A stretch of 64,000 nucleotides of DNA, taken from the NCBI GenBank assembly GCA_025024175.1, contig QCXZ01000003.1, positions 19,426,392 through 19,490,391 on the forward strand, in the 5' to 3' direction. The stretch's first letter is position 1. Every line of letters starts with the position of its first letter. This DNA comes from Rhyzopertha dominica (Eukaryota; Arthropoda; Insecta; Coleoptera; Bostrichidae). This document shows, in pieces, positions 31,605-61,215 of the stretch. Made by a program: the position numbers and the translations under genes. The notes below the pieces were generated by a model. The model was given only the letters and a program-made list of their open reading frames with translations. It did no database searches and was not told where the DNA came from.

Positions 31605-31608
31605 ATAT
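31605..31608. repeat. Target-site duplication, left
   Basis: ATAT, repeated at 37371-37374 after the 3' LTR. A 4-bp duplication is usual for Ty3/gypsy integrases. Confidence 0.85.
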
Positions 31609-32041
31609 TGCAACGCAGAGTCAGTGGTATCACGGCCCGCTCAACGCCTGTGGGCAGGCAACCCGACGTGCTAGAGTGTTCGAGATTAATCTATGCGAAA
31701 GGCTCTAGTAAAGTCTAGGAAGGTTCGAAATCGAGAGCCTTCGCGAATGTGCCAGACACGCCAAGTAAGTGGGGAGTCTGCGGATATATAAGCGGCCAGA
31801 GACGGAAGTGAGAGAGTTAGACAGTCTATGAACGCGCGAGTTTTGAAAGTGACGGAAAGTGAGATTTAAGTGTTGTAAAGTGATATAAGTAAACTGTAGT
31901 GTTTTTAAAAGTAGTGTATAGTTGAGTAAAGTTTGTTAATTGTTAAAGTAATTGTGAATAGTGCTTGTTAGTGTTTTAGAACTGTTAAATAAAGTGTTTT
32001 AAATCAGAAATCCAGAATTTTCGAACCCGAATTTCGTAACA
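31609..32041 (+). repeat. 5' LTR, copy 1
   Basis: It starts TGCAACGCAG and ends TTTCGTAACA. It carries a TATATAAG promoter box (31785-31792) and an AATAAA poly(A) signal (31988-31993), giving a plausible U3-R-U5 order. Confidence 0.95.
31785..31792 (+). promoter_or_regulatory. TATA box in the 5' LTR
   Basis: TATATAAG lies about 200 bases before the AATAAA signal, in the position expected for the LTR promoter. Transcripts would start about 25-35 bases downstream. Confidence 0.65.
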
Positions 32042-32043
32042 AT

Positions 32044-32055
32044 TGGTGTCAGAAA
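32044..32055 (+). promoter_or_regulatory. Primer binding site (tRNA-Leu type)
   Basis: TGGTGTCAGAA begins two bases after the LTR. It complements the CCA-terminated 3' end of animal tRNA-Leu (…TTCTGACA-CCA). Assignment is from memory of tRNA-Leu acceptor sequences. Confidence 0.7.
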
Positions 32056-32131
32056 GCGGAATTTTGGATTTCTGGAGTGTTCTACGGACCGGATAGACAG
32101 TGTTTGGAGAAGTTTTAGAAAATTCTAGTTT

Positions 32132-33334
32132 ATGCCAGTAACAAGAAGACAATCGGCCAATATGGAAGCACAACTAGAACAGTTAATGCAAATGATGCAG
32201 AAAATGCAAGAAAACATGACAGAGCAGATAAAAGCCTGTCAAGAGGACATGAAAACCGGACAAGAAGAAATGAAGGCAGAATTCAAAATCGGACAGGAAG
32301 AAATTAAGAAGAAAATAATAATGGCTGTGCAAGAACAACTTAAAACCGAAATAGAGGAAATCAGAACAAGCCAAAATAAAATTGAAGAACGGATCGACAG
32401 TGTAACAGAAGAGCTTAAAGTTACACAGAATGCAGTCGAAGAGAAAGTGGAGCTTGTCGAAGAAAAGGTCAACAAAGTAGAGGAAAAACTTTGCAATAAA
32501 TTCGAAGAAAAAGTTCTACACATGAAAGGAGAATTTGGAAAGGAAATTTTGACAGTAAAAAGAGACCTGGAAAGAATGAAAACCCACGGTATGACGTCTT
32601 CGCCAGTTATTGGAAATAACAAAATAAAACCACCGACTTATGATGGTCACACATCATTTGAGACTTACAAGCTGCAGTTTGAAATGGCAGGAAAGGCAAA
32701 TAACTGGAGTAATGAAGAAAAGGTTATGGCTTTGGTGGTAGCTCTACGTGGACCAGCTCTTGATTTACTTCGTACGCTGCCCGAAGCAGAGAAGGGTGAT
32801 TACCAGAAGCTTACTGCAGCACTGGAATTGCATTTTGGAGAACAGCACCTTCAACAGCTGTTCCGAACGCAATTGAAGACGCGTAAGCAGAAGGTCGGTG
32901 AAAGCCTACAAGATTTTGAAGCGGACGTGAGAAAGCTTATGCACATGGCATATCCGACAGCCCCAGCTGAGTTGTTAGAGGAACTGGCTACGCGAAGTTT
33001 CATCGAAGGTGTAAGAGATGATACTGTGAGGAACGCTTTGCTGCTAGCTACTTACACCACTACGAGAGAAGCCCTAGGAAAAGCCTTGGAGATCGAGGCG
33101 GCTTACAAGGCTTCAGCTGCCAACTGGGGCCAGTGTAAGGTACGTGGAACACAGGTCGAAGAGGAGACCGATTCACTGAAAGCAATCATGCGGGAGTTGA
33201 AAGAATTCCTAGCTGCGAATAAATCCGCCGGATGTCAGACCTGCTACCGCTGCGGAAAGACCGGGCACTTCAAGAGAGACTGCAGGGTGTCACTTCCTGC
33301 AGCGTCAAGAAGAAGCCAGCAGCAGGAAAACTAA
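32132..33334 (+). CDS. gag: gag polyprotein, copy 1 (400 aa)
   Basis: This is the structural protein of the element. Residues about 8-160 are a Lys/Glu/Gln-rich coiled coil (repeats of EEK, VEEKV), followed by a Gag-like helical region around 170-320 (TYKLQFEMAGKANNW, FRTQLKTRKQKVGESLQDF, PAELLEELATRSF). The single CCHC zinc knuckle CYRCGKTGHFKRDC is at 371-384. The Met at 32132 is the first in the long frame after the primer site. The frame overlaps pro by about 100 bases, and pro lies in the -1 frame, so it is probably reached by -1 ribosomal frameshifting. The GGAAAAC sequence just before the gag stop is a candidate slip site, although not a canonical heptamer. The antisense frames here are shadows. 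Confidence 0.93.
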   Translation: MPVTRRQSANMEAQLEQLMQMMQKMQENMTEQIKACQEDMKTGQEEMKAEFKIGQEEIKKKIIMAVQEQLKTEIEEIRTSQNKIEERIDSVTEELKVTQNAVEEKVELVEEKVNKVEEKLCNKFEEKVLHMKGEFGKEILTVKRDLERMKTHGMTSSPVIGNNKIKPPTYDGHTSFETYKLQFEMAGKANNWSNEEKVMALVVALRGPALDLLRTLPEAEKGDYQKLTAALELHFGEQHLQQLFRTQLKTRKQKVGESLQDFEADVRKLMHMAYPTAPAELLEELATRSFIEGVRDDTVRNALLLATYTTTREALGKALEIEAAYKASAANWGQCKVRGTQVEEETDSLKAIMRELKEFLAANKSAGCQTCYRCGKTGHFKRDCRVSLPAASRRSQQQEN

Positions 33335-33966
33335 AAACAGTCGGTGTTACGGGGCGCACACCGACTGCCCGAGAAGACAAAGCCCCCAAGATTGTTTCCG
33401 TCAACCTGCTACGACACAACAACGTGGATAGCCTCACAATGATGACAACCGTGAATGGAAAGAAGACGCAAGTGACCGTGGATACTGGAGCTATGGTTTC
33501 CATCATAAAGAAGAACATCGCACCGACAGTGAGACCCCTGATGGAGAAGGTTCTTCTGCGAACAGTGACAGGTGAAACGTCGCCGGCGATAGCTGAAGCT
33601 GAGGTTGAAGTGGAACTAGGGCAGCTTCGTATACGTCACAGGGTATTGGTGGCGGACATTGACGACGATTTCATCATGGGGATGGACCTGATAGGGAAGT
33701 ACGGACTTGCATATGATCCAGAAGAGCGGATTCTGAAAATCGGAAACGAGAGCTTCGTGCTAGAAACACCTGGAGGCGAAGCAAGGTGCGTGAGACTATA
33801 TGCTAGTGAAACCGTCCGAATAAGAGGAAGCAGCGAGCAGATCATCAACGCTGCGATGGGGAACGATCTTGGGAGCTGCGTTGGATTAGTAGAACCGACT
33901 GAAGACTCACACAAACACTTGTTGGTTGCAAGAACGCTTATCAAGACCTCCAAGACGGTGCCGTGA
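33232..33966 (+). CDS. pro: Aspartic protease region of pol, copy 1
   Basis: The -1 frame relative to gag is open from 33232. The retroviral-type aspartic protease active site VDTGAMVSII is at residues 83-92 (Asp84), with the closing hydrophobic-Gly motif FIMGMDLIGKYG (ILG/DxLG type) about 60 residues later. The frame stops at TGA 33964-33966. Copy 2 has one more G at the same place and reads straight through into RT, so this stop reflects a one-base loss in copy 1 (or a consensus error), and pro belongs to a single pol frame. The true N terminus is created by frameshift from gag and proteolysis. Confidence 0.85.
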   Translation: MSDLLPLRKDRALQERLQGVTSCSVKKKPAAGKLKTVGVTGRTPTAREDKAPKIVSVNLLRHNNVDSLTMMTTVNGKKTQVTVDTGAMVSIIKKNIAPTVRPLMEKVLLRTVTGETSPAIAEAEVEVELGQLRIRHRVLVADIDDDFIMGMDLIGKYGLAYDPEERILKIGNESFVLETPGGEARCVRLYASETVRIRGSSEQIINAAMGNDLGSCVGLVEPTEDSHKHLLVARTLIKTSKTVP

Positions 33967-36905
33967 GGATTGCAAACATCGCTCCTGTGGGAACGACAAT
34001 AAGAAAAGGAGATCTTTTGGCAACATGTACTCCCGTAACGAGGATAAACACCTGTGAGGATATGGAAGACACGCAGAAGACGCCAAGAACGCCGGCACAG
34101 CTCAACATCGATTTGAAACATCTTACCAAGGAGGAAGCACGAAGAGCCCGAGAATTTCTACGATGCTATCAACATGTGTTTGCCGAACCGGACACACCAA
34201 TGGGGAGAACAGACATCGTCCAGCACAGGATCAATACCGGAGATGCTCAACCTATTCGACAGGCACCTAGGAGACTACCACTGGCAAGACAAGAACAGGT
34301 TGAGAAGATGGTGAAAGAAATGACGGAGCAAGGTGTAATCGAGGAGTCCAACAGTCCATGGTCTTCACCAGTGGTTCTCGTCACCAAGAAGGATGGATCG
34401 CTCCGATTCTGTGTTGACTACCGAAAGCTGAATGACATAACGAAGAAGGACAGTTATCCCCTACCCAGAATCGACGACACATTGACCACTCTTTCCGGAT
34501 CTACATGGTTTTCAACACTGGATTTGAAAAGTGGATACTGGCAGGTTGGGATCCATCCAGAAGACAAAGAGAAGACTGCTTTCACCACCAGTTGCGGTCT
34601 TTACCAGTTCACGGTAATGCCATTTGGCCTCTGCAACGCTCCGGCTACATTTGAGAGACTAATGGAACTGGTATTACGTGGACTCACTTGGAAAACCTGC
34701 CTGGTCTACCTGGACGACGTTATGGTTATGGGCCGTGATTTTGAAGAGCATTTAAAGAACCTACAAGAAGTATTCGACCGGTTTAGAGCAGCCAACCTGA
34801 AGCTGAACCCGAAGAAGTGTGCACTTTTCCAGAAGAAAGTGGAATTCCTTGGCCATACGGTTTCTGCGGATGGGATTCAGACCAGTGATGACAAGATCAA
34901 GGCAATCCGCGATTGGCCACGTCCTCGGGATAAGCATGAAGTGAGGAGTTTTCTGGGAATTTGTACGTATTACAGAAGATTTGTGGAAGGGTTCGCTAAA
35001 ATCGCGGCACCATTACACCAACTTACGGAACCGAAGACGACTTTTGCATGGAGCCACGTTCATGAGGAAGCCTTCAGGAAGTTGAAGTCAGCCTTGTGCA
35101 GTAGTCCAATTTTGGCATACCCCCGAAGACACGGAAAGTTTATTCTGGAGACAGATGCCAGCAAGGTTGGGATTGGAGCTGTACTATCTCAGGTACAGGA
35201 CGGCGAAGAAAAAGTAATAGAGTATTACAGCAAAGCCCTAACTAAGCCTGAGAGGAACTACTGCGTCACGAGAAAAGAACTTCTGGCTATCGTGAAGTCC
35301 GTAGACCACTTCCATAAGTACCTGTACGGACGGGATTTCCTCATAAGGACGGACCATGCAGCATTATCCTGGCTACTACGATTGAAGAACCCCGAGGGAC
35401 AAGTCGCGAGGTGGATGGAGAGACTGCAGCAGTACGACTTCAAAATCCAGCATCGTCCAGGCAGGCATCATAACAACGCTGATGCCTTGTCGAGAAGACC
35501 GTGTGGAGAATGCAAACACTGCAGGAAGGTGGATGAACGAGAAGGCACGGTGGATATAAGAGCAGTCACCATCACACAAAGCGAGGAGTGGACTACCGAG
35601 AAAGTCAGAACGGCTCAGCAGGAAGACGGCGACGTGGGTCCCCTCCTGAAATGGAAAGAAGAAAACAGACAACGACCTGGATGGGAAGAGGTGTCTCCAG
35701 AAAGTCCGACCCTAAAAGCGATGTGGGTTCAGTGGGAATCCCTGCGAGTAGAAAATGGCCTGTTGAAGAGAGCGTGGGAGAGCGCCGATGGGAGGAATGT
35801 TACCATGCAGTTGGTAGTACCCAAGGAGTATGTACCTAAAGTTTTGGAAGAGGTACATGGAGGATCATCGGGCGCCCACCTGGGAGTGAACAAAACCTTG
35901 GGCAAAGTTCGTGAGCGTTTCTACTGGGTACACTGCCGAGAAGATGTGGAAAAGTGGTGCAGGAAATGCTCAACCTGCGCTGCTACCAAAGGACCGACAA
36001 CACGCCTGAAGGGAAGGATGAAGCAGTACAATGTTGGAGCACCATTCGAAAGGATTGCGATTGATGTCGCCGGACCATTTCCTACGACCACCAGCAACAA
36101 CAAGTACATCCTCGTTGCTATGGACTACTTCAGCAAGTGGCCAGAAGCCTATGCTATACCCAACCAGGAGGCTTCAACAGTGGCTCAAGTTCTCGTCGAT
36201 AATTTGGTATGCAGATTTGGAGTGCCACTGGAACTGCATTCTGACCAAGGAAGAAACTTCGAGTCCAGGGTGTTTCAAGAACTCTGTCACTTGCTGGGTA
36301 TTACTAAAACCAGAACAACACCGCTTCACCCGCAATCAGATGGAATGGTCGAGCGATTTAACCGGACAATGGAACAGTTTCTCTCCAAGGTTGTGGAGCG
36401 ACACCAGACGGACTGGGATAAGCATCTTCCTCTGTTTTTGATGGCATATAGAGCGGCCATCCACGAGACTACGGGGCAGACACCGGCGAAAGTAGTTCTA
36501 GGAAGAGAACTAAGGTTGCCTTGCGATTTGGTGTTTGGCTCTGCGGGAACATCCAATGAAGAGGGAGCAACTAGTTACGTCGAAAATCTTCGGGAGTCGC
36601 TATTGATAACACACCAGCTGGTGAGACAGAGAATGAACATTGCGAGCGATCGCATGAAAGCTCGGTACGATGTCAGAGCCAATCCCAGACAGTTCAACGA
36701 AGGAGACTTAGTGTGGCTCTACAATCCACAAAGGAAGAAGGGGCTTTCACCTAAGTTATCGCCATCCTGGGAAGGACCCTACCGTATAGTGAAAAGGATT
36801 AACGATGTAGTTTATAGAATCCAGCGCAGCCCAAGATCGAAGATGAAGGTGGTACACTTGAATCGTTTAAGTGAGTACCACGGAAATGTTGAAGACTGGA
36901 ACTGA
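33963..36905 (+). CDS. pol: pol: reverse transcriptase, RNase H, integrase, copy 1
   Basis: The 980-codon frame includes RT with FSTLDLKSGYWQV (Asp187), PFGLCNAPATFERLM and YLDD at 249-252. RNase H follows with LETDASKVGIGAVL (Asp398) and TRKELLAIV. The integrase has an HHCC zinc domain (HLGVNK…CRKCSTC), then D701 (IAIDVAGPF), D761 (HSDQGRNFES) and E797 (GMVERFNRT), spacing DD35E. A C-terminal SH3-like segment follows (FNEGDLVWLYNPQRKK…PYRIVKRINDVVYRIQ). The frame begins at the one-base lesion near 33961, so the first codons are not a natural start; in an intact element it continues from the protease. All catalytic residues are present. It ends 18 bases before the polypurine tract. Confidence 0.95.
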   Translation: MRIANIAPVGTTIRKGDLLATCTPVTRINTCEDMEDTQKTPRTPAQLNIDLKHLTKEEARRAREFLRCYQHVFAEPDTPMGRTDIVQHRINTGDAQPIRQAPRRLPLARQEQVEKMVKEMTEQGVIEESNSPWSSPVVLVTKKDGSLRFCVDYRKLNDITKKDSYPLPRIDDTLTTLSGSTWFSTLDLKSGYWQVGIHPEDKEKTAFTTSCGLYQFTVMPFGLCNAPATFERLMELVLRGLTWKTCLVYLDDVMVMGRDFEEHLKNLQEVFDRFRAANLKLNPKKCALFQKKVEFLGHTVSADGIQTSDDKIKAIRDWPRPRDKHEVRSFLGICTYYRRFVEGFAKIAAPLHQLTEPKTTFAWSHVHEEAFRKLKSALCSSPILAYPRRHGKFILETDASKVGIGAVLSQVQDGEEKVIEYYSKALTKPERNYCVTRKELLAIVKSVDHFHKYLYGRDFLIRTDHAALSWLLRLKNPEGQVARWMERLQQYDFKIQHRPGRHHNNADALSRRPCGECKHCRKVDEREGTVDIRAVTITQSEEWTTEKVRTAQQEDGDVGPLLKWKEENRQRPGWEEVSPESPTLKAMWVQWESLRVENGLLKRAWESADGRNVTMQLVVPKEYVPKVLEEVHGGSSGAHLGVNKTLGKVRERFYWVHCREDVEKWCRKCSTCAATKGPTTRLKGRMKQYNVGAPFERIAIDVAGPFPTTTSNNKYILVAMDYFSKWPEAYAIPNQEASTVAQVLVDNLVCRFGVPLELHSDQGRNFESRVFQELCHLLGITKTRTTPLHPQSDGMVERFNRTMEQFLSKVVERHQTDWDKHLPLFLMAYRAAIHETTGQTPAKVVLGRELRLPCDLVFGSAGTSNEEGATSYVENLRESLLITHQLVRQRMNIASDRMKARYDVRANPRQFNEGDLVWLYNPQRKKGLSPKLSPSWEGPYRIVKRINDVVYRIQRSPRSKMKVVHLNRLSEYHGNVEDWN

Positions 36906-36923
36906 TCGGGACGATCAGTCTTT

Positions 36924-36936
36924 AAGGAGGGGGTAG
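36924..36936 (+). promoter_or_regulatory. Polypurine tract, copy 1
   Basis: AAGGAGGGGG plus TAG lies immediately before the 3' LTR and primes plus-strand DNA synthesis. Confidence 0.85.
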
Positions 36937-37370
36937 TGCAACGCAGAGTCAGTGGTATCACGGCCCCGCTCAACGCCTGTGGGCAGGCAACCCGACGTGC
37001 TAGAGTGTTCGAGATTAATCTATGCGAAAGGCTCTAGTAAAGTCTAGGAAGGTTCGAAATCGAGAGCCTTCGCGAATGTGCCAGACACGCCAAGTAAGTG
37101 GGGAGTCTGCGGATATATAAGCGGCCAGAGACGGAAGTGAGAGAGTTAGACAGTCTATGAACGCGCGAGTTTTGAAAGTGACGGAAAGTGAGATTTAAGT
37201 GTTGTAAAGTGATATAAGTAAACTGTAGTGTTTTTAAAAGTAGTGTATAGTTGAGTAAAGTTTGTTAATTGTTAAAGTAATTGTGAATAGTGCTTGTTAG
37301 TGTTTTAGAACTGTTAAATAAAGTGTTTTAAATCAGAAATCCAGAATTTTCGAACCCGAATTTCGTAACA
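36937..37370 (+). repeat. 3' LTR, copy 1
   Basis: It is identical to the 5' LTR except for one extra C near 36965. It is followed by the ATAT target duplication. Confidence 0.95.
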
Positions 37371-38096
37371 ATATATTTATTTACTTAAACCAGAAATCTA
37401 CAAATGTGAATTCTGCAGAAAAGAACTCATGCATAGGTCCTTGTATATTCTCTGTTTATCAAAGACAGGTGATTTGTATAGGTACATTTTTTCTGCCATG
37501 CAAGTATAAAAATAACTATGAGGAAATACTTGAAAAATCAAGAATGTACATGAATATGTTTTTTTATCGAGGAGAATGTGTATATGTGTATTTCTGTAAG
37601 AATCCTATTTGCCTTAGGTTTTTACAGAATATATCTACTTAAAAACCTAGTTCTGCCGCTTATATATCATCTACATTTTGTAGTATTACAAGATTTTGAC
37701 AAAATAATTATTAAATTATTATATTATTATAGCTTTTCTTAAAATAGGAAAGATAATTTTTTCCTTGTTTTAAATAGGGGTAATCTCTTTACCATAATTA
37801 TTGTGCTCTACTGTTACTATATCTATAAGTATTAATTAAATTAGATATTTGTATATTGTCAAACTATGGTGATAATGCACTATGAACACTCAATATATCA
37901 TCAAACAATATATTTCTATTGCATCTGTCTGAATATTTTAATGTGAACTGATGGACGGCGCTAAAGATTTGCATGGAGTACTGTGTCGGACAGCACCACT
38001 ATGTTTGCTTAAATCACTGTCGGACAGCGCTCTAAACAGTGCCTTATATTCATGTCTATAGTGGGGGTGTCAAACTTTCCACGCATGCGTACTTAA

Positions 38097-38795
38097 GGCT
38101 GCGATCCTGAAGAAAGATCCATCCGAGATAACGATAGAAAGAGAACCACAATTATTCTACAAAACAGGACCACTCCATAATTATACTGCACTGATATCTG
38201 AAAACGGTCTTATTCGAAAGATCGTGATCGACATTTTCGCGTAAGCTATTTTTTATGTGCAAACTAAGTGATACAATAACCAAAATTCGTAAAAGTGTAG
38301 GCTAGAAATCAAGGAGGAAGTATAGCAGGAGGGAGCGCGGCCGTAAGCCCAATGTAAAATATTTCGCACCACGCCAGACACCTTTTATTACTCTGTTACG
38401 ACTTGCGCAGTCGGGAATCTCTACAAACCGCTGGCACACGACGCTTGTTTTCAACAACCACAGGCCGTAATCGTAGTCGCGAAACACCTTTTATTGCCCT
38501 AAACCTCGTGGCGCGCGCGATCAGTTTTTCAAACCGACGCGCGACGCTCCCTCCTGTTATTCTTCCTCCTTGCTAGAAATAATCTAAAAGGTAGTACTCA
38601 ATTATTTTAGCAAAAAATATTGAGTATATTGATTTGAGAAATACTTTAGGCTCTAGCTGAACCTTTTATCTTTGAGATAAGCATACATTTATCTCTAATA
38701 GGTATTCAGTAGTTCTTAGGTGCTGCTGTTGTAAAAATGTTTCTTTTCTCTCGGTAATTTTGAATATATCTTTCTCTCTCTCCAGGGTCCCAGCC
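38097..38795. mobile_element. TTAA-flanked repeat with nested MITE (copy at 46041-46741)
   Basis: TTAA is present at 38093-38096 and 38796-38799. The ends GGCTGCGATCCTG and CAGGGTCCCAGCC are inverse with two mismatches. It aligns in reverse with 21809-22270. Without the nested 263-bp MITE and its duplicated 8 bp it is about 430 bp and non-coding. The TTAA target suggests piggyBac-type mobilisation, but the end sequence is not diagnostic. Confidence 0.7.
38310..38572. mobile_element. 263-bp MITE with 8-bp target duplication
   Basis: Ends CAAGGAGGAAG and CTTCCTCCTTG are perfect inverse repeats, extended imperfectly through GCAGGAGGGAGCG. It is flanked by CTAGAAAT on both sides (38302-38309 and 38573-38580). 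The paralogue at 21809-22270 lacks the insert and has one copy of the target, confirming insertion. Eight-base duplications point to hAT or P-type mobilisation. The GC-rich interior has no meaningful frame. Confidence 0.9.
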
Positions 38796-39445
38796 TTAAT
38801 GGATAATGGAACGCGTTCCGATAATTAGCCGCTCCTCACTCCTCAGTCCTCACATAAGTGCCGGCAAAACAATAACAACCGCTTCGCTAAAACGAAAATA
38901 TAACGTTCCACAAATCGTATCCGACCAACAAAACTTCAGATCCAACACTTCTTCTTGACCAACCGCAAACGCCCGCTTTTTGATAGCTGATCGTAAAAAT
39001 ATCAACAGGTCAGCCAGGAAATAAATAAACTACCACTACGTACCCACAAATTCTTTATCCGATTGTCCGTTGTCCTTGTGGCTGATGGCATGCTTCTACG
39101 AGTTTACCCGATGACGCACAGAGCGCAGACGCTTGCTTGAAAATTGAGATTCTTCTACAGAGTTTATATCAATATTTCATGTATCCATGGGGTTTATGGA
39201 AGTTATCGATTAAATCAATTTGCCGCCTCCCAGGAAAGTGACGTATACTGGTCATCTGTCGATTTTTTAATTATTGGATATTCTATGTTTGATATATTTT
39301 ATTATGTACTATCTCAGTGCATATTGTAGCTTAGCAGCAGTTACAAAAAGGCGTCACAAAGAATTCAGAAATCAACGCCGCCCGCGTGGCATGAATCATT
39401 TATAGAAGCCTTGTATTTATATGATCGAAAATTGAAATCCATTCA

Positions 39446-39545
39446 NNNNNNNNNNNNNNNNNNNNNNNNNNNNNNNNNNNNNNNNNNNNNNNNNNNNNNN
39501 NNNNNNNNNNNNNNNNNNNNNNNNNNNNNNNNNNNNNNNNNNNNN
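39446..39545. other. Assembly gap of exactly 100 N
   Basis: A run of 100 N is the conventional gap of unknown length placed when contigs are joined. The right contig begins with ATAT and the LTR of copy 2. Confidence 0.97.
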
Positions 39546-39549
39546 ATAT

Positions 39550-39981
39550 TGCAACGCAGAGTCAGTGGTATCACGGCCCGCTCAACGCCTGTGGGCAGGC
39601 AACCCGACGTGCTAGAGTGTTCGAGATTAATCTATGCGAAAGGCTCTAGTAAAGTCTAGGAAGGTTCGAAATCGAGAGCCTTCGCGAATGTGCCAGACAC
39701 GCCAAGTAAGTGGGGAGTCTGCGGATATATAAGCGGCCAGAGACGGAAGTGAGAGTTAGACAGTCTATGAACGAGCGCGAGTTTTGAAAGTGACGGAAAG
39801 TGAGATTTATGTGTTATAAAGTGATATAAGTAAACTGTAGTGTTTTTAAAAGTGGTGTATAGTTGAGTAAAGTTTGTTAATTGTTAAAGTAATTGTGAAT
39901 AGTGCTTGTTAGTGTTTTGAACTGTTAAATAAAGTGTTTTAAATCAGAAATCCAGAATTTTCGAACCCGAATTCCGTAACA
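39550..39981 (+). repeat. 5' LTR, copy 2
   Basis: 432 bp. It differs from the other three LTRs at several points (a 2-bp loss and a 2-bp gain near 39755-39775, ATGTGTTATAAAG, AGTGGTG, ATTCCG), although the other three are nearly identical. Confidence 0.93.
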
Positions 39982-40067
39982 ATTGGTGTCAGAAGGATTT
40001 TGGATTTCTGGAGTGTTCTACGGACCGGATAGACAGTGTTTGGAGAAGTTTTAGAAAATTCTAGTTT

Positions 40068-41269
40068 ATGCCAGTAACAAGAAGACAATCGGCCAATATG
40101 GAAGCACAACTAGAACAGTTAATGCAAATGATGCAGAAAATGCAAGAAAACATGACAGAGCAGATAAAAGCCTGTCAAGAGGACATGAAAACCGGACAAG
40201 AAGAAATGAAGACAGAATTCAAAATCGGACAGGAAGAAATTAAGAAGAAAATAATAATGGCTGTGCAAGAACAACTTAAAACCGAAATAGAGGAAATCAG
40301 AACAAGCCAAAATAAAATTGAAGAACGGATCGACAGTGTAACAGAAGAGCTTAAAGTTACACAGAATGCAGTCGAAGAGAAAGTGGAGCTTGTCGAAGAA
40401 AAGGTCAACAAAGTAGAGGAAAAACTTTGCAATAAATTCGAAGAAAAAGTTCTACACATGAAAGGAGAATTTGGAAAGGAAATTTTGACAGTAAAAAGAG
40501 ACCTGGAAAGAATGAAAACCCACGGTATGACGTCTTCGCCAGTTATTGGAAATAACAAGATAAAACCACCGACTTATGATGGTCACACATCATTTGAGAC
40601 TTACAAGCTGCAGTTTGAAATGGCAGGAAAGGCAAATAACTGGAGTAATGAAGAAAAGGTTATGGCTTTGGTGGTAGCTCTACGTGGACCGGCTCTTGAT
40701 TTACTTCGTACGCTGCCCGAAGCAGAGAAGGGTGATTACCAGAAGCTTACTGCAGCACTGGAATTGCATTTTGGAGAACAGCACCTACAACAGCTGTTTC
40801 GTACCCAGCTGAAGACCCGTAAACAAAAAGTCGGTGAGACCCTGCAAGACTTCGAAGCGGACGTAAGGAAACTTATGCATCTGGCATATCCGACAGCCCC
40901 AACTGAGCTTGTGGAGGAGCTGGCAACGCGAGTTTTATCGAAGGTGTAAGAGATGACACTGTGAGGAACGCTTTGCTGCTAGCCACTTACACCACTACGA
41001 GAGAAGCCCTAGGGAAAGCTTTGGAGATCGAGGCGGCTTACAAGGCTTCAGCTGCCAACTGGGGCCAGTGTAAGGTACGTGGAACACAGGTCGAAGAGGA
41101 GACCGATTCACTGAAAGCAATCATGCGGGAGTTGAAAGAATTCCTAGCTGCGAATAAATCCGCCGGATGTCAGACCTGCTACCGCTGCGGAAAGACCGGG
41201 CACTTCAAGAGAGACTGCAGGGTGTCACTTCCTGCAGCGTCAAGAAGAAGCCAGCAGCAGGAAAACTAA
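40068..41269 (+). pseudogene. gag: gag, copy 2 (one frameshift)
   Basis: Collinear with the copy 1 gag. The frame breaks at about 40934 by a one-base loss (CGCGAGTTTT where copy 1 has CGCGAAGTTT) and resumes as 40961-41269 with the same CCHC knuckle. The 155 bases before the break differ from copy 1 at about 27 positions, yet only four residues change (S/T, M/L, A/T, L/V). This is the signature of a diverged relative under protein-level selection. Confidence 0.88.
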
Positions 41270-44200
41270 AAACAGTCGGTGTTACGGGGCGCACACCGAC
41301 TGCCCGAGAAGACAAAGCCCCCAAGATTGTTTCCGTCAACCTGCTACGACACAACAACGTGGATAGCCTCACAATGATGACAACCGTGAATGGAAAGAAG
41401 ACGCAAGTGACCGTGGATACTGGAGCTATGGTTTCCATCATAAAGAAGAACATCGCACCGACAGTGAGACCCCTGATGGAGAAGGTTCTTCTGCGAACAG
41501 TGACAGGTGAAACGTCGCCGGCGATAGGTGAAGCTGAGGTTGAAGTGGAACTAGGGCAGCTTCGTATACGTCACAGGGTATTGGTGGCGGACATTGACGA
41601 CGATTTCATCATGGGGATGGACCTGATAGGGAAGTACGGACTTGCATATGATCCAGAAGAGCGGATTCTGAAAATCGGAAACGAGAGCTTCGTGCTAGAA
41701 ACACCTGGAGGCGAAGCAAGGTGCGTGAGGCTATATGCTAGTGAAACCGTCCGAATAAGAGGAAGCAGCGAGCAGATCATCAACGCTGCGATGGGGAACG
41801 ATCTTGGGAGCTGCGTTGGATTAGTAGAACCGACTGAAGACTCACACAAACACTTGTTGGTTGCAAGAACGCTTATCAAGACCTCCAAGACGGTGCCGGT
41901 GAGGATTGCAAACATCGCTCCTGTGGGAACGACAATAAGAAAAGGAGATCTTTTGGCAACATGTACTCCCGTAACGAGGATAAACACCTGTGAGGATATG
42001 GAAGACACGCAGAAGACGCCAAGAACGCCGGCACAGCTCAACATCGATTTGAAACATCGTTACCAAGTGATGAAGCACGAAGAGCCCGAGATATTCTAGC
42101 GATGCTATCAACATGGTTTGGCCGAACCGGACACACCCAATGGGGAAATTACAGACATTCGTCCAGCAACAGGTCAATACCGGAGATGCCCAACCTATTT
42201 CGAACAGGCACCTAGGAGACTACCACTGGCAAGACAAGAACAGGTTGAGAAGATGGTGAAAGAAATGACGGAGCAAGGTGTAATCGAGGAGTCCAACAGT
42301 CCATGGTCTTCACCAGTGGTTCTCGTCACCAAGAAGGATGGATCGCTCCGATTCTGTGTTGACTACCGAAAGCTGAATGACATAACGAAGAAGGACAGTT
42401 ATCCCCTACCCAGAATCGACGACACATTGACCACTCTTTCCGGATCTACATGGTTTTCAACACTGGATTTGAAAAGTGGATACTGCAGGTTGGGATCCAT
42501 CCAGAAGACAAAGAGAAGACTGCTTTCACCACCAGTTGCGGTCTTTACCAGTTCACGGTAATGCCATTTGGCCTCTGCAACGCTCCGGCTACATTTGAGA
42601 GACTAATGGAACTGGTATTACGTGGACTCACTTGGAAAACCTGCCTGGTCTACCTGGACGACGTTATGGTTATGGCCGTGATTTTGAAGAGCATTTAAAG
42701 AACCTACAAGAAGTATTCGACCGGTTTAGAGCAGCCAACCTGAAGCTGAACCCGAAGAAGTGTGCACTTTTCCAGAAGAAAGTGGAATTCCTTGGCCATA
42801 CGGTTTCTGCGGATGGGATTCAGACCAGTGATGACAAGATCAAGGCAATCCGCGATTGGCCACGTCCTCGGGATAAGCATGAAGTGAGGAGTTTTCTGGG
42901 AATTTGTACGTATTACAGAAGATTTGTGGAAGGGTTCGCTAAAATCGCGGCACCATTACACCAACTTACGGAACCGAAGACGACTTTTGCATGGAGCCAC
43001 GTTCATGAGGAAGCCTTCAGGAAGTTGAAGTCAGCCTTGTGCAGTAGTCCAATTTTGGCATACCCCCGAAGACACGGAAAGTTTATTCTGGAGACAGATG
43101 CCAGCAAGGTTGGGATTGGAGCTGTACTATCTCAGGTACAGGACGGCGAAGAAAAAGTAATAGAGTATTACAGCAAAGCCCTAACTAAGCCTGAGAGGAA
43201 CTACTGCGTCACGAGAAAAGAACTTCTGGCTATCGTGAAGTCCGTAGACCACTTCCATAAGTACCTGTACGGACGGGATTTCCTCATAAGGACGGACCAT
43301 GCAGCATTATCCTGGCTACTACGATTGAAGAACCCNGAGGGACAAGTCGCGAGGTGGATGGAGAGACTGCAGCAGTACGACTTCAAAATCCAGCATCGTC
43401 CAGGCAGGCATCATAACAACGCTGATGCCTTGTCGAGAAGACCGTGTGGAGAATGCAAACACTGCAGGAAGGTGGATGAACGAGAAGGCACGGTGGATAT
43501 AAGAGCAGTCACCATCACACAAAGCGAGGAGTGGACTACCGAGAAAGTCAGAACGGCTCAGCAGGAAGACAGCGACGTGGGTCCCCTCCTGAAATGGAAA
43601 GAAGAAAACAGACAACGACCTGGATGGGAAGAGGTGTCTCCAGAAAGTCCGACCCTAAAAGCGATGTGGGTTCAGTGGGAATCCCTGCGAGTAGAAAATG
43701 GCCTGTTGAAGAGAGCGTGGGAGAGCGCCGATGGGAGGAATGTTACCATGCAGTTGGTAGTACCCAAGGAGTATGTACCTAAAGTTTTGGAAGAGGTACA
43801 TGGAGGATCATCGGGCGCCCACCTGGGAGTGAACAAAACCTTGGGCAAAGTTCGTGAGCGTTTCTACTGGGTACACTGCCGAGAAGATGTGGAAAAGTGG
43901 TGCAGGAAATGCTCAACCTGCGCTGCTACCAAAGGACCGACAACACGCCTGAAGGGAAGGATGAAGCAGTACAATGTTGGAGCACCATTCGAAAGGATTG
44001 CGATTGATGTCGCCGGACCATTTCCTACGACCACCAGCAACAACAAGTACATCCTCGTTGCTATGGACTACTTCAGCAAGTGGCCAGAAGCCTATGCTAT
44101 ACCCAACCAGGAGGCTTCAACAGTGGCTCAAGTTCTCGTCGATAATTTGGTATGCAGATTTGGAGTGCCACTGGAACTGCATTCTGACCAAGGAAGAAAC

Positions 44201-44848
44201 TTCGAGTCCAGGGTGTTTCAAGAACTCTGTCACTTGCTGGGTATTACTAAAACCAGAACAACACCGCTTCACCCGCAATCAGATGGAATGGTCGAGCGAT
44301 TTAACCGGACAATGGAACAGTTTCTCTCCAAGGTTGTGGAGCGACACCAGACGGACTGGGATAAGCATCTTCCTCTGTTTTTGATGGCATATAGAGCGGC
44401 CATCCACGAGACTACGGGGCAGACACCGGCGAAAGTAGTTCTAGGAAGAGAACTAAGGTTGCCTTGCGATTTGGTGTTTGGCTCTGCGGGAACATCCAAT
44501 GAAGAGGGAGCAACTAGTTACGTCGAAAATCTTCGGGAGTCGCTATTGATAACACACCAGCTGGTGAGACAGAGAATGAACATTGCGAGCGATCGCATGA
44601 AAGCTCGGTACGATGTCAGAGCCAATCCCAGACAGTTCAACGAAGGAGACTTAGTGTGGCTCTACAATCCACAAAGGAAGAAGGGGCTTTCACCTAAGTT
44701 ATCGCCATCCTGGGAAGGACCCTACCGTATAGTGAAAAGGATTAACGATGTAGTTTATAGAATCCAGCGCAGCCCAAGATCGAAGATGAAGGTGGTACAC
44801 TTGAATCGTTTAAGTGAGTACCACGGAAATGTTGAAGACTGGAACTGA
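41167..44848 (+). pseudogene. pol: pro-pol, copy 2 (several frameshifts)
   Basis: The protease (VDTGAMVSII) reads through the pro-RT joint without the stop found in copy 1. The frame then breaks at about 42050-42060 inside a cluster of small indels (to about 42200), again at about 42485 (loss of one G before CAGGTTGGG), and at about 42673 (loss of one G within the codons after YLDDVMVM). From there to the stop at 44846-44848 RNase H and integrase are open and match copy 1, apart from one N at 43336. All breaks are one- to few-base indels, many in runs, as expected for residual sequencing errors as much as for decay. Confidence 0.88.
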
Positions 44849-44866
44849 TCGGGACGATCAGTCTTT

Positions 44867-44879
44867 AAGGAGGGGGTAG
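44867..44879 (+). promoter_or_regulatory. Polypurine tract, copy 2
   Basis: The same AAGGAGGGGGTAG as in copy 1, directly before the 3' LTR. Confidence 0.85.
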
Positions 44880-45312
44880 TGCAACGCAGAGTCAGTGGTA
44901 TCACGGCCCGCTCAACGCCTGTGGGCAGGCAACCCGACGTGCTAGAGTGTTCGAGATTAATCTATGCGAAAGGCTCTAGTAAAGTCTAGGAAGGTTCGAA
45001 ATCGAGAGCCTTCGCGAATGTGCCAGACACGCCAAGTAAGTGGGGAGTCTGCGGATATATAAGCGGCCAGAGACGGAAGTGAGAGAGTTAGACAGTCTAT
45101 GAACGCGCGAGTTTTGAAAGTGACGGAAAGTGAGATTTAAGTGTTGTANCNTGATATAAGTAAACTGTAGTGTTTTTAAAAGTAGTGTATAGTTGAGTAA
45201 AGTTTGTTAATTGTTAAAGTAATTGTGAATAGTGCTTGTTAGTGTTTTAGAACTGTTAAATAAAGTGTTTTAAATCAGAAATCCAGAATTTTCGAACCCG
45301 AATTTCGTAACA
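44880..45312 (+). repeat. 3' LTR, copy 2
   Basis: It matches the LTRs of copy 1. Two ambiguous bases stand at 45149 and 45151. It is followed by ATAT and the duplicated flank. Confidence 0.93.
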
Positions 45313-46040
45313 ATATATTTATTTACTTAAACCAGAAATCTACAAATGTGAATTCTGCAGAAAAGAACTCATGCATAGGTCCTTGTATATTCTCTGTTTA
45401 TCAAAGACAGGTGATTTGTATAGGTACATTTTTTCTGCCATGCAAGTATAAAAATAACTATGAGGAAATACTTGAAAAATCAAGAATGTACATGAATATG
45501 TTTTTTTATCGAAGGAGAATGTGTATATGTGTATTTCTGTAAGAATCCTATTTGCCTTAGGTTTTTACAGAATATATCTACTTAAAAACCTAGTTCTGCG
45601 CTTATATATTCATCTACATTTTGTAGTATTACAAGATTTTGACAAAATAATTATTAAATTATTATTATTATTATAGCTTTTTCTTAAAATAGGAAGATAA
45701 TTTTTTCCTTGTTTTAAATAGGGGTAATCTCTTTACCATAATTATTGTGCTCTACTGTTACTATATCTATAAGTATTAATTAAATTAGATATTTGTATAT
45801 TGTCAAACTATGGTGATAATGCACTATGAACACTCAATATATCATCAAACAATATATTTCTATTGTGTCTGTCTGAATATTTTAATGTGAACTGATGGAC
45901 GGCGCTAAAGATTTGCATGGAGTACTGTGTCGGACAGCACCACTATGTTTGCTTAAATCACTGTCGGACAGCGCTCTAAACAGTGCCTTATATTCATGTC
46001 TATAGTGGGGGTGTCAAACTTTCCACGCATGCGTACTTAA

Positions 46041-46741
46041 GGCTGCGATCCTGAAGAAAGATCCATCCGAGATAACGATAGAAAGAGAACCACAATTATT
46101 CTACAAAACAGGACCACTCCATAATTATACTGCACTGATATCTGAAAACGGTCTTATTCGAAAGATCGTGATCGACATTTTCGCGTAAGCTATTTTTTAT
46201 GTGCAAACTAAGTGATACAATAACCAAAATTCGTAAAAGTGTAGGCTAGAAATCAAGGAGGAAGTATAGCAGGAGGGAGCGCGGCCGTAAGCCCAATGTA
46301 AAATATTTCGCACCACGCCAGACACCTTTTATTACTCTGTTACGACTTGCGCAGTCGGGAATCTCTACAAACCGCTGGCACACGACGCTTGTTTTCAACA
46401 ACCACAGGCCGTAATCGTAGTCGCGAAACACCTTTTATTGCCCTAAACCTCGTGGCGCGCGCGACCAGTTTTTCAAACCGACGCGCGACGCTCCCTCCTG
46501 TTATTCTTCCTCCTTGCTAGAAATAATCTAAAAGGTAGAACTCAATTATTTTAGCAAAAAAATATTGAGTATATTGATTTGAGAAATACTTTAGGCTCTA
46601 GCTGAACCTTTTATCTTTGAGATAAGCATACATTTATCTCTAATAGGTATTCAGTAGTTCTTAGGTGCTGCTGTTTGTAAAAATAGTTTCTTTTCTCTCG
46701 GTAATTTGAATATATCTTTCTCTCTCTCCAGGGTCCCAGCC
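46041..46741. mobile_element. TTAA-flanked repeat with nested MITE (second copy)
   Basis: The same as 38097-38795, with TTAA at 46037-46040 and 46742-46745. The nested 263-bp MITE is at 46254-46516, flanked by CTAGAAAT. Confidence 0.7.
46254..46516. mobile_element. 263-bp MITE (second copy)
   Basis: The same ends (CAAGGAGGAAG…CTTCCTCCTTG) and the same 8-bp CTAGAAAT duplication as 38310-38572; one substitution was noticed in the GC-rich interior. Confidence 0.88.
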
Positions 46742-47689
46742 TTAATGGATAATGGAACGCGTTCCGATAATTAGCCGCTCCTCACTCCTCAGTCCTCACA
46801 TAAGTGCCGGCAAAACAATAACAACCGCTTCGCTAAAACGAAAATATAACGTTCCACAAATCGTATCCGACCAACAAAACTTCAGATCCAACACTTCTTC
46901 TTGACCAACCGCAAACGCCCGCTTTTTGATAGCTGATCGTAAAAATATCAACAGGTCAGCCAGGAAATAAATAAACTACCACTACGTACCCACAAATTCT
47001 TTATCCGATTGTCCGTTGTCCTTGTGGCTGATGGCATGCTTCTACGAGTTTACCCGATGACGCACAGAGCGCAGACGCTTGCTTGAAAATTGAGATTCTT
47101 CTACAGAGTTTATATCAATATTTCATGTATCCATGGGGTTTATGGAAGTTATCGATTAAATCAATTTGCCGCCTCCCAGGAAAGTGACGTATACTGGTCA
47201 TCTGTCGATTTTTTAATTATTGGATATTCTATGTTTGATATATTTTATTATGTACTATCGCCGTGCATATTGTAGCTTAGCAGCAGTTACAAAAAGGCGT
47301 CACAAAGAATTCAGAAATCAACGCCGCCCGCGTGGCATGAATCATTTATAGAAGCCTTGTATTTATATGATCGAAAATTGAAATCCATTCAGAACTTAAG
47401 ACCACGGCAAGCTAATTAAATACCGCATTTTATAAGGTATTAGAAAATGCTGTCGACCTAAACTAACGACCTTTGTAAAATGCGATAAAGCTTATAACTA
47501 AGTACTGCAAAACAGATGAATGATGGCGAGCGGTGGGGATGAGACACGTTGGCGCCAGCCTTAGATAGTGCCGACAATTATTGTATACCAGTGGCGGCGC
47601 AAACAAACATTTTTTGATTTCCACGCAAAGTGGTGTTTGGGAAAAAGGAATACAGGAAACATTATTATTGTGTAATTAAGTAAACAAAA

Positions 47690-49802: not shown

Positions 49803-49968
49803 ATGGAAGATAAAGGCGGTGGAAATGTTCTTTCGGCAGTTCTGTCTGAAAGCGAGTGGCGGGATATACCATCGCAAACGGCAAAAAAGTTGCGCTCCTT
49901 CGTAGAAAAACAGATTGAGGAATTTCTAACCGTAAAAGCAGTTCTAGAAACTAACCGCTACAACGCAG
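49803..49968 (+). CDS. Mtor: TPR exon 1 (coding)
   Basis: ATG at 49803 (context AACAATGG). It encodes the N terminus through RYNA and one base of Glu. The donor GTAACC starts at 49969 and the intron is only 80 bp. Confidence 0.9.
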
Positions 49969-52900
49969 GTAACCTGTTAACTTTTGTGGTCATTTACACC
50001 TTTAATTCATAAAACATTGCTTATTCCTCATATTGTCATATTTTGTAGAAAGCAACTTATCAGAAATAAAGGAACAGTATGTCTCTTTGTCTAATGAACG
50101 TGATGATTTATTGGAGAAGCATGATGCCGCAACTAAAACAATTACAGAATTGGAAAATCAGGTCTCATTATCTGTTGCTGAAATTACTAAATTACAAAGC
50201 ACATGTAGTCGGCTGGAGGCCGAAATGGCTGATTTTAGGCATCAAAGAAATTTGGCTATTGATGAACGAGACGAATTGTTAAAGATGATTGATCGACGAA
50301 ATGCAGAAGTTGAAAGAATGCAAGCGGATATAGAGATACTTACTAAACAGTTGACTGCAGCCGTTAGTGCCAAATGTGAAGCACTAGCTCAGGCTGACGA
50401 AGTAGCATCTATGAAGTTGACTATTGAATATAAAGAAAAGCGACTAGAACAAGAACGTGCTTTACTAAATAATCAAGTCCAGAGTCTTACGCAAGATCTT
50501 ACCCAACGTACAGAAGAACTAATCAATTTGAGACGTGATAATGTATCCAGATGTATTCAGTTGGAAACTAAACTAACAGAGAAGAATCAGGAGTTGTCTG
50601 TTGCATTAGAGCAGATTCAATGCTTGACTGATGTGAACAGTAATTTGAAACAGAAAGCCGAAGAATTATCTGAAAAATTAATCTGTCAAAAAGAGGTGCA
50701 TTCCAAAGCCAATGAATCTTACATGCATGAACTTGAGACGAAAACAAAACTAGCGGAGTTATATAAGAGTACCAGTGAAGAATACCAGCAGCATGTTGAG
50801 AAACTTACCAAGGCTATTGCAGAAGTATGTAGTGTATTTTATTTATTCTTAACTTCCATTCATGGTTTTTATTTTTTGTGAGAAGTAGACTTAAGAAGAA
50901 AATTTTCTGAGTTCACGGCAAAACTTATAAAACTTAATTACATAATCAGAAGGATTCCTCCTACGTGATTCAAATGATGTGGAGTTTCAATTTTTTTTTA
51001 CAAGTATTTTCATATATATTAAAAAAATCATAACCACAAATTTTCTGGTCAATCTGGATGGTGTCATGAATCTGAATAGGGCTTTTTTATTTGAATAATT
51101 GTTTTTTCAGATGATGTTATTGATGTATTACCTTTGTGTATATATATTATAGTGTGCTCACCTACATTGCGAAAAAGGGGACAGATTTTGGGGGCGAAAT
51201 GCGAGTGTTTCTGGGGGCAAATGTTTGATGGCGCTGTAACGGATTTGTAAAATAGAAGTAATTGACGTTACCGGCATCTGGAGTACCCCTCATGTCCCCC
51301 ACTACAAAACCGTTCTTATACCGACATGCCGACGTTGCCAAATGATGCTACTGTTATGTTAGCGCAGAGTACGAGTTGCAATCATAAATAGTATATTCAT
51401 ACAAATCTGTTACAATACGTACTAAAAACAAAACCTTATGTCTTATGCAGCGACACAGTCGTCTTGCAGATCATTTTTTAATTCATATAATGAACATGTA
51501 ATCTCCGTAAATGTTCGTGTAGATGCAAATTACAAACTGCCGCGGGACATCCCGTAAAAACGAATTTTTATAAACACATTCCTCCTACGATTTATTGACT
51601 ACCTATTTATGGGTAGGTACTTATCTAATAAACAAAAAAAAACAGATTGTAATATATTCCGTTTACTGAACTTCAACAGTTCAAATCTAAGATTATATTT
51701 ATGCTTTAACAGATGATCTGCGCGATACAGTGAAAAACAATCGAACAAGCAATAAAAATATTACTATAGTCTTGCAAGCGAGATTCCCGAAGATAGGTCG
51801 TGTGAGGGTAGGTCAGGTTACAATATGTTTGTTATTTCTTCGACTATGTAGTAAATGAGATACCTACCGTTTTGGGCAAATAGACAAATAAGTATAACTG
51901 GAACTGGTGTTGATGTATGATTAAGAGAGACTGTGATTTGGAGCTTTGCAATTTGAAAGCCACGATGCGTGGAACCGCGAAAGCTGAAAAATGCTCGTCT
52001 TGTCGTCGTCTTCTGCAGTCGTTTGATAGAAGGGGTACTGTCTGATATTCCCCTTTAACAAAATTCAAAGCTCCGATTTACCGCATTTAATGCCATGTAG
52101 GAGTTCCGATGTTTGACGCTACTTACTGCCAAAAGACAGAGATAAATTAGCAAAATAGGTGTCTGCGATAAATCCCATAAGGTGAGCACACTATAATATA
52201 TATACACAAGGGTATTACAGTCATCATCCATTATACCTTACTTCAGTTTTAATAATAATAATGACATTTTATTCATAGGTTCATAGAATATGTCAATACA
52301 AGTGAAATACAGACATTACAATTTAAAAATACAATATGCAATTAAAATAATCCTTTACAGCTTAGAATGGTTTTTTACACTTGACTACCTATTCCCCTGT
52401 TAAAATAAAAAACCACATACTGTATATTTGTAAATATTGTGTGCACACTATAAAAAAAGTCCAGTAAAGGTATTTAAAAAAATAGGTATTATTCTTGAGA
52501 GGATATCATACTTTTGCATGTTTATTGGATAGGTACCTTAAATTTAATGTTGTAACAGTTTCATTATGTTTATTTGTTTTACATCAATGAATGTATTCAA
52601 TCACATGTATAGAGGCTATTCAATTAGTAGCTCCTGCAGGCGATATGCCATTTTANTTAAGTAAGAANTTAGGTGGCAGTGCCATCTGTCAGCATTGCAC
52701 TGACATGATGACAAAGCCACCTAGCTGCCTAAATGGGTACTACTTTCTAAAGGAAAAAAAAGCTGTCTGTACTGACGAGCTATAATGATAGCGAAATAGA
52801 TCTATCTGCAGTTGGTTGTGATGCAGACAGCACAGCATAGATATGCATTTTAATGTGATTTTATTGTTTTATTTGGAATTGCCACATTTCATAACCAAAA

Positions 52901-59795: not shown

Positions 59796-61215
59796 GTGAG
59801 TAATTTGCATTTGTGTAAAATTCTTTTTCTTAATATATACATTACTACTGCTGTGTAAGGGTGAATGCTTTCACTGTCCATAATATGAGATTAGTAATTT
59901 ATGGAAAAACTCGTTTGCTAAACATACATTAACAAAAATTTAACAATCTGACATTTTGATACACCTGTAATCTTTGTCAAAAACCAGAATCACCAAAAAA
60001 TGTCTGACACAAGTTCGAACAAAGTTTTAGAAGTAAAGAAACAAACAAAGATATCATAGAAACAACATATCAAGCTGATTTAAATAGTTCCAAGTAGAAA
60101 GGGTCAATCCACTTGATATACATAAACTACTTTATAATATAATGTCTATTATTGCTATTAAAGTTAAAAGTATTTCTATAAATTTCTATAGTTCTAGTTA
60201 GCTTTTTAATAATATTTTCATCTTTGTGAAATTGTACTGAGAATCACTCATGTACTTATTTTGTTAGAAGTTAATGTTCATGTACGTAAGATTTAGCTAT
60301 TTTTTTGCAGCCTAGCGGCATATATGTATGTGTTTTTACAAATGTGTCCCTACTTTTCTTTTGGTCTGACCCATGTAACATTTGCACAGGAACAAATAAT
60401 TTTTCAAACACCTTTATTTTCTAAATATACTTAATATTTTTTACTTAATTTGTTCAAATAATTTTATTCAAAATTGACAAAATATTCCCTTTACTATTAC
60501 TCATGTTAGTACCATCCCTGGTTGTCTGGAAAACTGTATTCTCACACATGCTTAAAGGTTAGTGTTGGGCAATACTAGATATTGATATGTATCGTAAAAG
60601 AATGTATCGATGCAAGTAGTGTATCGACTTTAGAAGTAATGATACCTTTAGTATGAAAATAATATCATATCGGATGAACACATTACAGAATAAACACCTG
60701 CTCATTTGAGGGTAAAAAAAAGCAATACAAATGTGCAAAAAAATTGCTTGGTTGCCATTTAAATCATCATGGAAATACTTTAACACACAAAGCCAAAAAG
60801 TAGGCTATGAAATGAAAAATAATGGAGAAGTTTAAGCTTAAGCTGAAAAGACCTCGGATTTAAGGATATAAGCCAGAAGAAGAAAAGATCAGGCTTCAAG
60901 TAAGCACCCTCCTTAAACAGGCTCTGACATCACCTGCCGATACAATACACGCAAGGTGTGAATAATCTCGATGCTAGCCATAATTATAGTATATTCTCTT
61001 GTTTCTTATTGTCAATCATTGACAAAAGTCAGTAGACTCCGTTTTTAAGCAAAATGAGTGGAAATCAGTTGACAAGCACAAACAAGTAATATACAGGGTG
61101 TCCAGAGCTAGCGTGATTCTCTTATAGCTCTGTTCGATTTGAAGATACTCAAAAACTTTTTAAACAAAATCGTAATCAAATTATCTCCTTTACATTTTAA
61201 AATTATTTTCACATA
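59796..61215. other. TPR intron 5, left part
   Basis: It holds no recognisable gene except a broken hAT end at 60560. A CAGGGTGTCC motif at 61094 may be a decayed foldback end. Confidence 0.45.
60560..60690. repeat. Broken hAT end related to 17273-18230
   Basis: It starts TAGTGTTGGGCAATAC, close to the ends of the 17.3-kb element, and is followed by repeated ATCGAT-type motifs (TGTATCGATGC, GTGTATCGAC). No opposite end was found, so it is a truncated relative. Confidence 0.55.

What the first reader, a model, noticed from the sequence alone, without database searches (positions are those of the whole stretch)
31609..47391. Gypsy element plus 2.07 kb of flank present twice across a 100-N gap: probable false duplication
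31609-39445 and 39550-47391 are the same unit: identical ATAT target site, identical downstream flank including a TTAA element with a nested MITE, and differences of well under 1% in the flank, mostly one-base indels in runs. Independent insertions would not share a 2-kb flank, and a true tandem duplication would not be expected to break exactly at an N gap and to restart at the target site.
Basis: partly seen in the sequence, partly recalled or inferred. Interest (0 to 1): 0.8.

Follow-up and report, generated by a model that had tools for sequence, protein, structure and literature searches.

The report
False duplication at an assembly gap
One young retrotransposon and its flanking DNA were most likely written twice into the lesser grain borer genome because two overlapping assembly pieces were laid end to end across a standard gap; it is an ordinary assembly error, not biology.

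Summary
Window 31605-39445 and 39546-47391 are one 7.84-kb unit (98.8% identical) split by exactly 100 N. The match runs from the first base after the gap and stops at the last base before it: the end of contig 1 equals the start of contig 2. The genome is Rhyzopertha dominica (CANU contigs, Dovetail HiRise); Dovetail is reported to insert 100 Ns per join.

False duplication is supported, with a refinement. Copy B's first ~2.5 kb does not look like a second copy of this insertion. Left of A-position ~34116, B mostly carries states of other members of this abundant Ty3/Gypsy family; right of ~34262 it shares this insertion's minority states (3 of 3 columns) and its flank. Between lies a stretch whose 23 differing columns match none of 11 other copies. 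B's two LTRs disagree at 12 columns, A's at one. The likeliest account: contig 2's left end is repeat-derived consensus that stops where family members lose common sequence, and copy A is the more reliable version. No reads could be checked, and a library cut-off of 15 kb makes a break in a 5.8-kb repeat less expected. A true tandem duplication remains possible (about 4%). Interest low.

The parts
31605..31608 (+). ATAT, left target-site duplication of copy A; also the left limit of the shared unit
31609..37370 (+). Ty3/Gypsy LTR retrotransposon, copy A (5' LTR 31609-32041, 3' LTR 36937-37370); the LTRs differ by one base in a C run only
   Evidence: Pfam gag zinc knuckle, protease, RT, RNase H, integrase in its open frames
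32129..33334 (+). open gag frame, copy A (401 aa, PNMA-like and CCHC zinc knuckle)
33223..33966 (+). open protease frame, copy A (247 aa)
33903..36905 (+). open RT-RNase H-integrase frame, copy A (1000 aa)
37371..37374 (+). ATAT, right target-site duplication of copy A
37371..39445 (.). right flank, first version (2075 bases), ends at the gap; holds a TTAA-ended element 38093-38799 with a nested inverted-repeat element 38310-38572
39446..39545 (.). 100-N scaffold gap; the only run of more than 2 N in 264,000 contiguous bases
39546..42051 (+). left part of copy B: mostly carries states of other family members, not of this insertion (read as repeat-derived contig end)
42052..42207 (+). scrambled switch stretch in copy B (A 34116-34262): 23 differing columns, B state in 0 of 11 other copies
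42208..45312 (+). right part of the element in copy B: locus-derived, 99.7% identical to A by column
45313..47391 (.). right flank, second version; the sequence continues beyond it without a gap

Best explanation
The genome has one insertion of this Ty3/Gypsy element here, followed by one 2.07-kb flank. CANU ended one contig 2.07 kb right of the element. It began the next contig inside the same locus and extended it leftwards into the element with reads drawn partly from other near-identical copies, until the 5' end of the element, where copies stop sharing sequence. HiRise put the two contigs side by side without merging their 7.84-kb overlap, with 100 N between them. Shown: the dovetail overlap, the gap, the two-part make-up of copy B, the matching LTRs of A. 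Inferred: the read-level events in CANU, and that reads do not support two copies.
For: Overlap reaches both contig ends exactly. The gap is 100 N, Dovetail's fixed join size (PMC5545040 passages), in an assembly made with CANU, Arrow, Chicago/Hi-C HiRise and a SeqManNGen hybrid step (PMC8956072 section 2.4.1). It is the only such gap in 264 kb. The 631 flank bases tested match in full only here. LTR four-way test: 13 differing columns, odd one out B5 in 9, B3 in 3 (two of them N), A3 in 1, A5 in 0. At columns left of the switch where A's state is in at most 3 of 11 other copies, B has the majority state in 11 of 14, A's in 2, another in 1; right of it, B shares A's state in 3 of 3, two of them adjacent. 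B's gag stretch matches 39 other places, all printed as 100%; A's matches 10 others at 99-100% (each list stops at 40 scored places).
Against: No reads, depth or Hi-C map were available. The long-read library was size-selected with a 15-kb lower cut-off, so reads long enough to cross a 5.8-kb element should exist, and a contig break there is less expected. The two flank versions differ by 13 events in 2075 bases, 4 of them substitution events, more than expected of two well-polished copies of one molecule; DNA came from 20 pupae, so some may be allelic. In the 5' LTR segment B is clearly nearer than A to only 1 of 11 other copies (L044); elsewhere in that segment A and B stand about equally far from the others. 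The other copies were read only up to A position 34799, so the right-hand test rests on 3 columns. Only one gap could be examined, so how common the error is in this assembly is unknown.
Confidence: 0.8

Rival explanations
1. Heterotype false duplication: the two contig ends are two haplotypes of the locus, present in the pooled pupae, laid in tandem. Still an artefact.
For: DNA was from 20 mixed-sex pupae of an inbred strain. The flank shows 4 substitution events, and the element right of the switch one isolated substitution, compatible with low residual variation.
Against: 9 of 13 flank events are one-base indels or a compound of two, typical of PacBio consensus noise (general knowledge). 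Copy B's left part resembles other genomic copies of the family rather than an allele of A, and its LTRs disagree.
Confidence: 0.15
2. True tandem duplication of element plus flank, with later conversion of the left half of copy B by another family member; the gap hides the junction.
For: The assembly as written shows two units. Gene conversion between LTR elements is an established process (general knowledge) and could move 2.5 kb of another copy into B.
Against: It needs the duplication limits to coincide with both contig ends. Conversion does not explain a 147-base stretch with 23 columns matching none of the 11 other copies examined.
Confidence: 0.04
3. Two contigs from different loci wrongly joined: contig 2 begins in another family member elsewhere and happens to share the flank.
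For: The left part of B mostly carries states of other family members.
Against: The 631 flank bases tested have only these two full-length matches, and the right half of the element matches A's minority states (3 of 3 columns), so contig 2 does belong next to contig 1.
Confidence: 0.01

Closest known systems
[quoted passage not shown] 2021, PMC8081667, Extended Data Fig. 5b legend)
   Same: Two contig ends dovetail, and scaffolding leaves tandem copies with a gap between (passages).
   Different: One contig end mostly carries states of other members of a repeat family, so part of the duplicate seems not to be the locus at all. The paper says such repeats are often as long as a corrected read; read lengths were not seen here, and 7.84 kb is below the 15-kb library cut-off.
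Heterotype (haplotype) false duplication (PMC9516828, PMC8081667)
   Same: Duplicated pair split by a gap on one scaffold (passages).
   Different: The divergence is uneven, with repeat mixing on one side, rather than even haplotype divergence.
Ty3/Gypsy LTR retrotransposon (the element itself)
   Same: LTRs, 4-bp ATAT target-site duplication, gag zinc knuckle, protease, RT, RNase H, integrase.
   Different: Nothing unusual seen; clade not assigned here.

Membership tests
Homotype false duplication at contig boundaries | A scaffold gap lies between the two copies | tested here: met
   100 N at 39446-39545
Homotype false duplication at contig boundaries | Overlap dovetails: suffix of contig 1 equals prefix of contig 2, to both ends | tested here: met
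   31605-39445 against 39546-47391, similarity ends at the contig ends
Homotype false duplication at contig boundaries | Consensus quality differs between copies | tested here: met
   B has 23 columns in the switch stretch and two one-base deletions further right that match 0 of 11 other copies; B's gag-pol frames are in more pieces than A's. B5's 9 odd LTR columns may be repeat mixing instead of quality
Homotype false duplication at contig boundaries | Read depth per copy below expectation, discordant pairs, k-mer copy number in excess | not testable with these tools
   no reads available
Heterotype false duplication | Haplotype-specific k-mers at half depth in each copy | not testable with these tools
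   no reads available; 4 substitution events in the 2075-base flank leave it open
True tandem duplication | Spanning reads, or a junction of copy 1 to copy 2 in sequence | tested here: inconclusive
   no junction sequence exists in the assembly; the gap takes its place; reads not available
Ty3/Gypsy LTR retrotransposon | LTR pair, target-site duplication, RT upstream of integrase | tested here: met

The most novel reading that the evidence does not exclude
A real recent tandem duplication of a retrotransposon insertion and its flank, 2.4 kb upstream of the first detected coding part of the nucleoporin TPR gene, in which one copy's 5' half was then converted by a different subfamily.
Probability: 0.04. 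Interest if true: 0.3.

Novelty: not a real feature. Interest (0 to 1): 0.12.

Why it matters
If right, it is a local correction for users of the R. dominica assembly: about 7.9 kb including the gap should not be counted as sequence, as a second LTR insertion, or as a tandem duplication upstream of the TPR gene. It also gives a cheap rule usable without reads: at a 100-N join, test whether the two contig ends dovetail, and whether a repeat at one end carries states of other family members.

Tried and rejected
Rejected: independent insertions at one site, because the flank is shared and its tested stretch (631 of 2075 bases) matches in full only at these two places. Rejected: that copy B is simply copy A plus sequencing errors; left of the switch B mostly has the states of other family members. 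Rejected: that isolated single Ns mark copy B as special; they occur all along the stretch read (89 single Ns and one NN in 264 kb), and B has 3 against 0 in A, too few to tell. In one search the rows printed at position 34739 were dropped before counting: they are overhang beyond the cut ends of A and B.

Full report
Identity of the genome. The window is G000:C3:19426392-19490391 in a 479,159,283-base assembly of 138 contigs. Contig C136 has 82,855,609 bases. [quoted passage not shown] PMC8956072, passages). The method section, read whole, states: PacBio RSII reads from 20 mixed-sex pupae of an inbred strain, a library cut-off of 15 kb, CANU v1.3, Arrow, Chicago and Hi-C scaffolding by HiRise, and an intermediate hybrid step with MiSeq reads. 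The results passage speaks of male pupae instead.

The observation. A self-comparison of the window finds 31605-39445 again at 39546-47391, 98.8% identical over 7863 columns. Between them lie exactly 100 N. The match begins at the first base after the gap and ends, on the other side, at the last base before it. So the suffix of the left contig equals the prefix of the right contig. Both copies have the target site ATAT next to the element. The left flank stretch 30600-31600 matches in full only itself, 1 of 42 matches. The right flank stretch 37420-38050 (631 of 2075 flank bases) matches in full only at the two places in the window (100% and 99%); the other 11 of 13 matches are partial and at most 82%. 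In 264,000 contiguous bases around and including the window the 100-N gap is the only N run longer than two.

The element. Copy A is a Ty3/Gypsy LTR retrotransposon of 5762 bases, 31609-37370. Its open frames carry a gag zinc knuckle and PNMA-like domain, an aspartic protease, reverse transcriptase, RNase H and integrase. Its two LTRs differ by one base in a C run, so the insertion is young. In copy B the same coding stretch is cut into more and shorter open pieces. The family is large and nearly uniform: both gag queries stopped at 40 scored places (of 174 and 181 candidates), and all of those matched at 94% or more.

Copy B is a mosaic. Differences between A and B are unevenly spread: 97.9% identity for A 31605-34115, 84% for 34116-34262, 99.4% for 34263-39445. 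In a 235-base gag stretch, 32 substitutions fall 26 times on the third codon position, the mark of real sister sequences rather than of read errors. A genome query with A's version finds 10 other places at 99-100%, one at 95% and 28 at 94%. A query with B's version finds 39 other places, all printed as 100%. Two of the 11 copies read are intermediate in that stretch: of its 33 differing columns L047 has A's state in 29 and B's in 4, L048 A's in 6 and B's in 27.

Against the 3.2-kb 5' pieces of 11 other copies (L038-L048), I looked at columns where A's state is in at most 3 of 11. Left of the switch B has the majority state in 11 of 14 such columns, A's in 2, another in 1. Right of it B has A's state in 3 of 3, two of them adjacent (the end-of-cut rows at 34739 were dropped). 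In 34263-34735, A and B have no substitution and 2 gap columns between them, while each has 1 to 5 substitutions against the other copies. The 23 differing columns of the switch stretch have B's state in 0 of 11 copies. The picture is less sharp in the 5' LTR: there B is clearly nearer than A to only one copy, L044, which alone shares three of B's states, and A and B are about equally far from the rest. Finally, an insertion starts with two equal LTRs: among 13 differing columns of the four LTRs the odd one out is B5 in 9, B3 in 3 (two of them N), A3 in 1, A5 in 0.

Interpretation. Copy A fits one insertion with nearly equal LTRs and an uninterrupted left flank. Copy B fits a contig whose left end ran from the flank backwards into the repeat and picked up other family members, with a scrambled stretch where the sources meet. 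It stops at the 5' end of the element, where the copies no longer share sequence. The ATAT before the element in B is only four bases; 3 of 11 other copies (L039, L040, L043, the first two with the same flank) also have ATAT there, so it need not come from this locus. Dovetail is reported to add 100 Ns per join without sizing the gap (PMC5545040, passages). Rhie et al. describe the outcome: overlapping sequences at contig boundaries become tandem copies with a gap between after scaffolding (PMC8081667, passages). Ko et al. [quoted passage not shown]

What remains open. No reads could be mapped. With a 15-kb library cut-off, reads able to cross a 5.8-kb element should exist, so why CANU broke here is not explained. 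The flank versions differ by 13 events in 2075 bases, 9 of them one-base indels or a compound of two, and 4 substitution events. Noise is likely, but residual variation among the 20 pupae could supply part of it. I therefore put about 0.8 on an unmerged overlap of one locus, 0.15 on two haplotypes laid in tandem, 0.04 on a real duplication and 0.01 on a wrong join. The first two make the second unit false.

Consequence. The first detected coding part of the TPR gene lies at 49827, 2.4 kb right of the repeat (with 4 of the 112 relatives found). No Pfam family was found in 9 of 29 short frames of the flank. No duplicated gene part was seen. If the reading is right, the error adds a false LTR insertion and about 7.9 kb upstream of TPR.

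Noticed in passing
L039 (G000:C86:16172391-16175992) and L040 (G000:C86:16134421-16138022): Two copies of the same family 38 kb apart in opposite orientation share 383 bases of left flank at 99.7%; over the whole 3605 aligned columns there are 1 mismatch and 10 gap openings. A second duplicated insertion, either a palindrome or another assembly error.
   Followed up: partly
window 32851-33085 and the matching part of copy B, 40787-41020: The family has at least two subfamilies that differ in a 235-base gag stretch, 26 of 32 substitutions at third codon positions, while nearly identical around it, with two intermediate copies: perhaps a trace of recombination between element lineages.
   Followed up: partly
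window 31611-31632 and the other three LTR starts: The LTR start holds two adjacent 11-base matches to a widely used template-switching cDNA primer (recalled sequence), in permuted order. The same stretch is in all 11 other copies read, unchanged in 4 and with one base changed in 7, so it looks natural; it may trip adapter screens.
   Followed up: partly
window 49827-59800: Nucleoporin TPR gene of the host, + strand, seen as five matched coding pieces.
   Followed up: partly
window 62080-62838 (-): 252-aa open frame that looks like a mariner-type transposase (recalled resemblance, no family search run), with one unknown residue.
   Followed up: no
window 15457-16160: 2.6 tandem copies of a 276-base unit, with inverted partial copies nearby.
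   Followed up: no
G000:C3:19376392-19640391: 89 isolated single Ns and one NN in 264 kb, perhaps ambiguous calls from the hybrid short-read step.
   Followed up: no
PMC8956072: The genome paper gives the DNA source as male pupae in the results and as 20 mixed-sex pupae in the methods.
   Followed up: no
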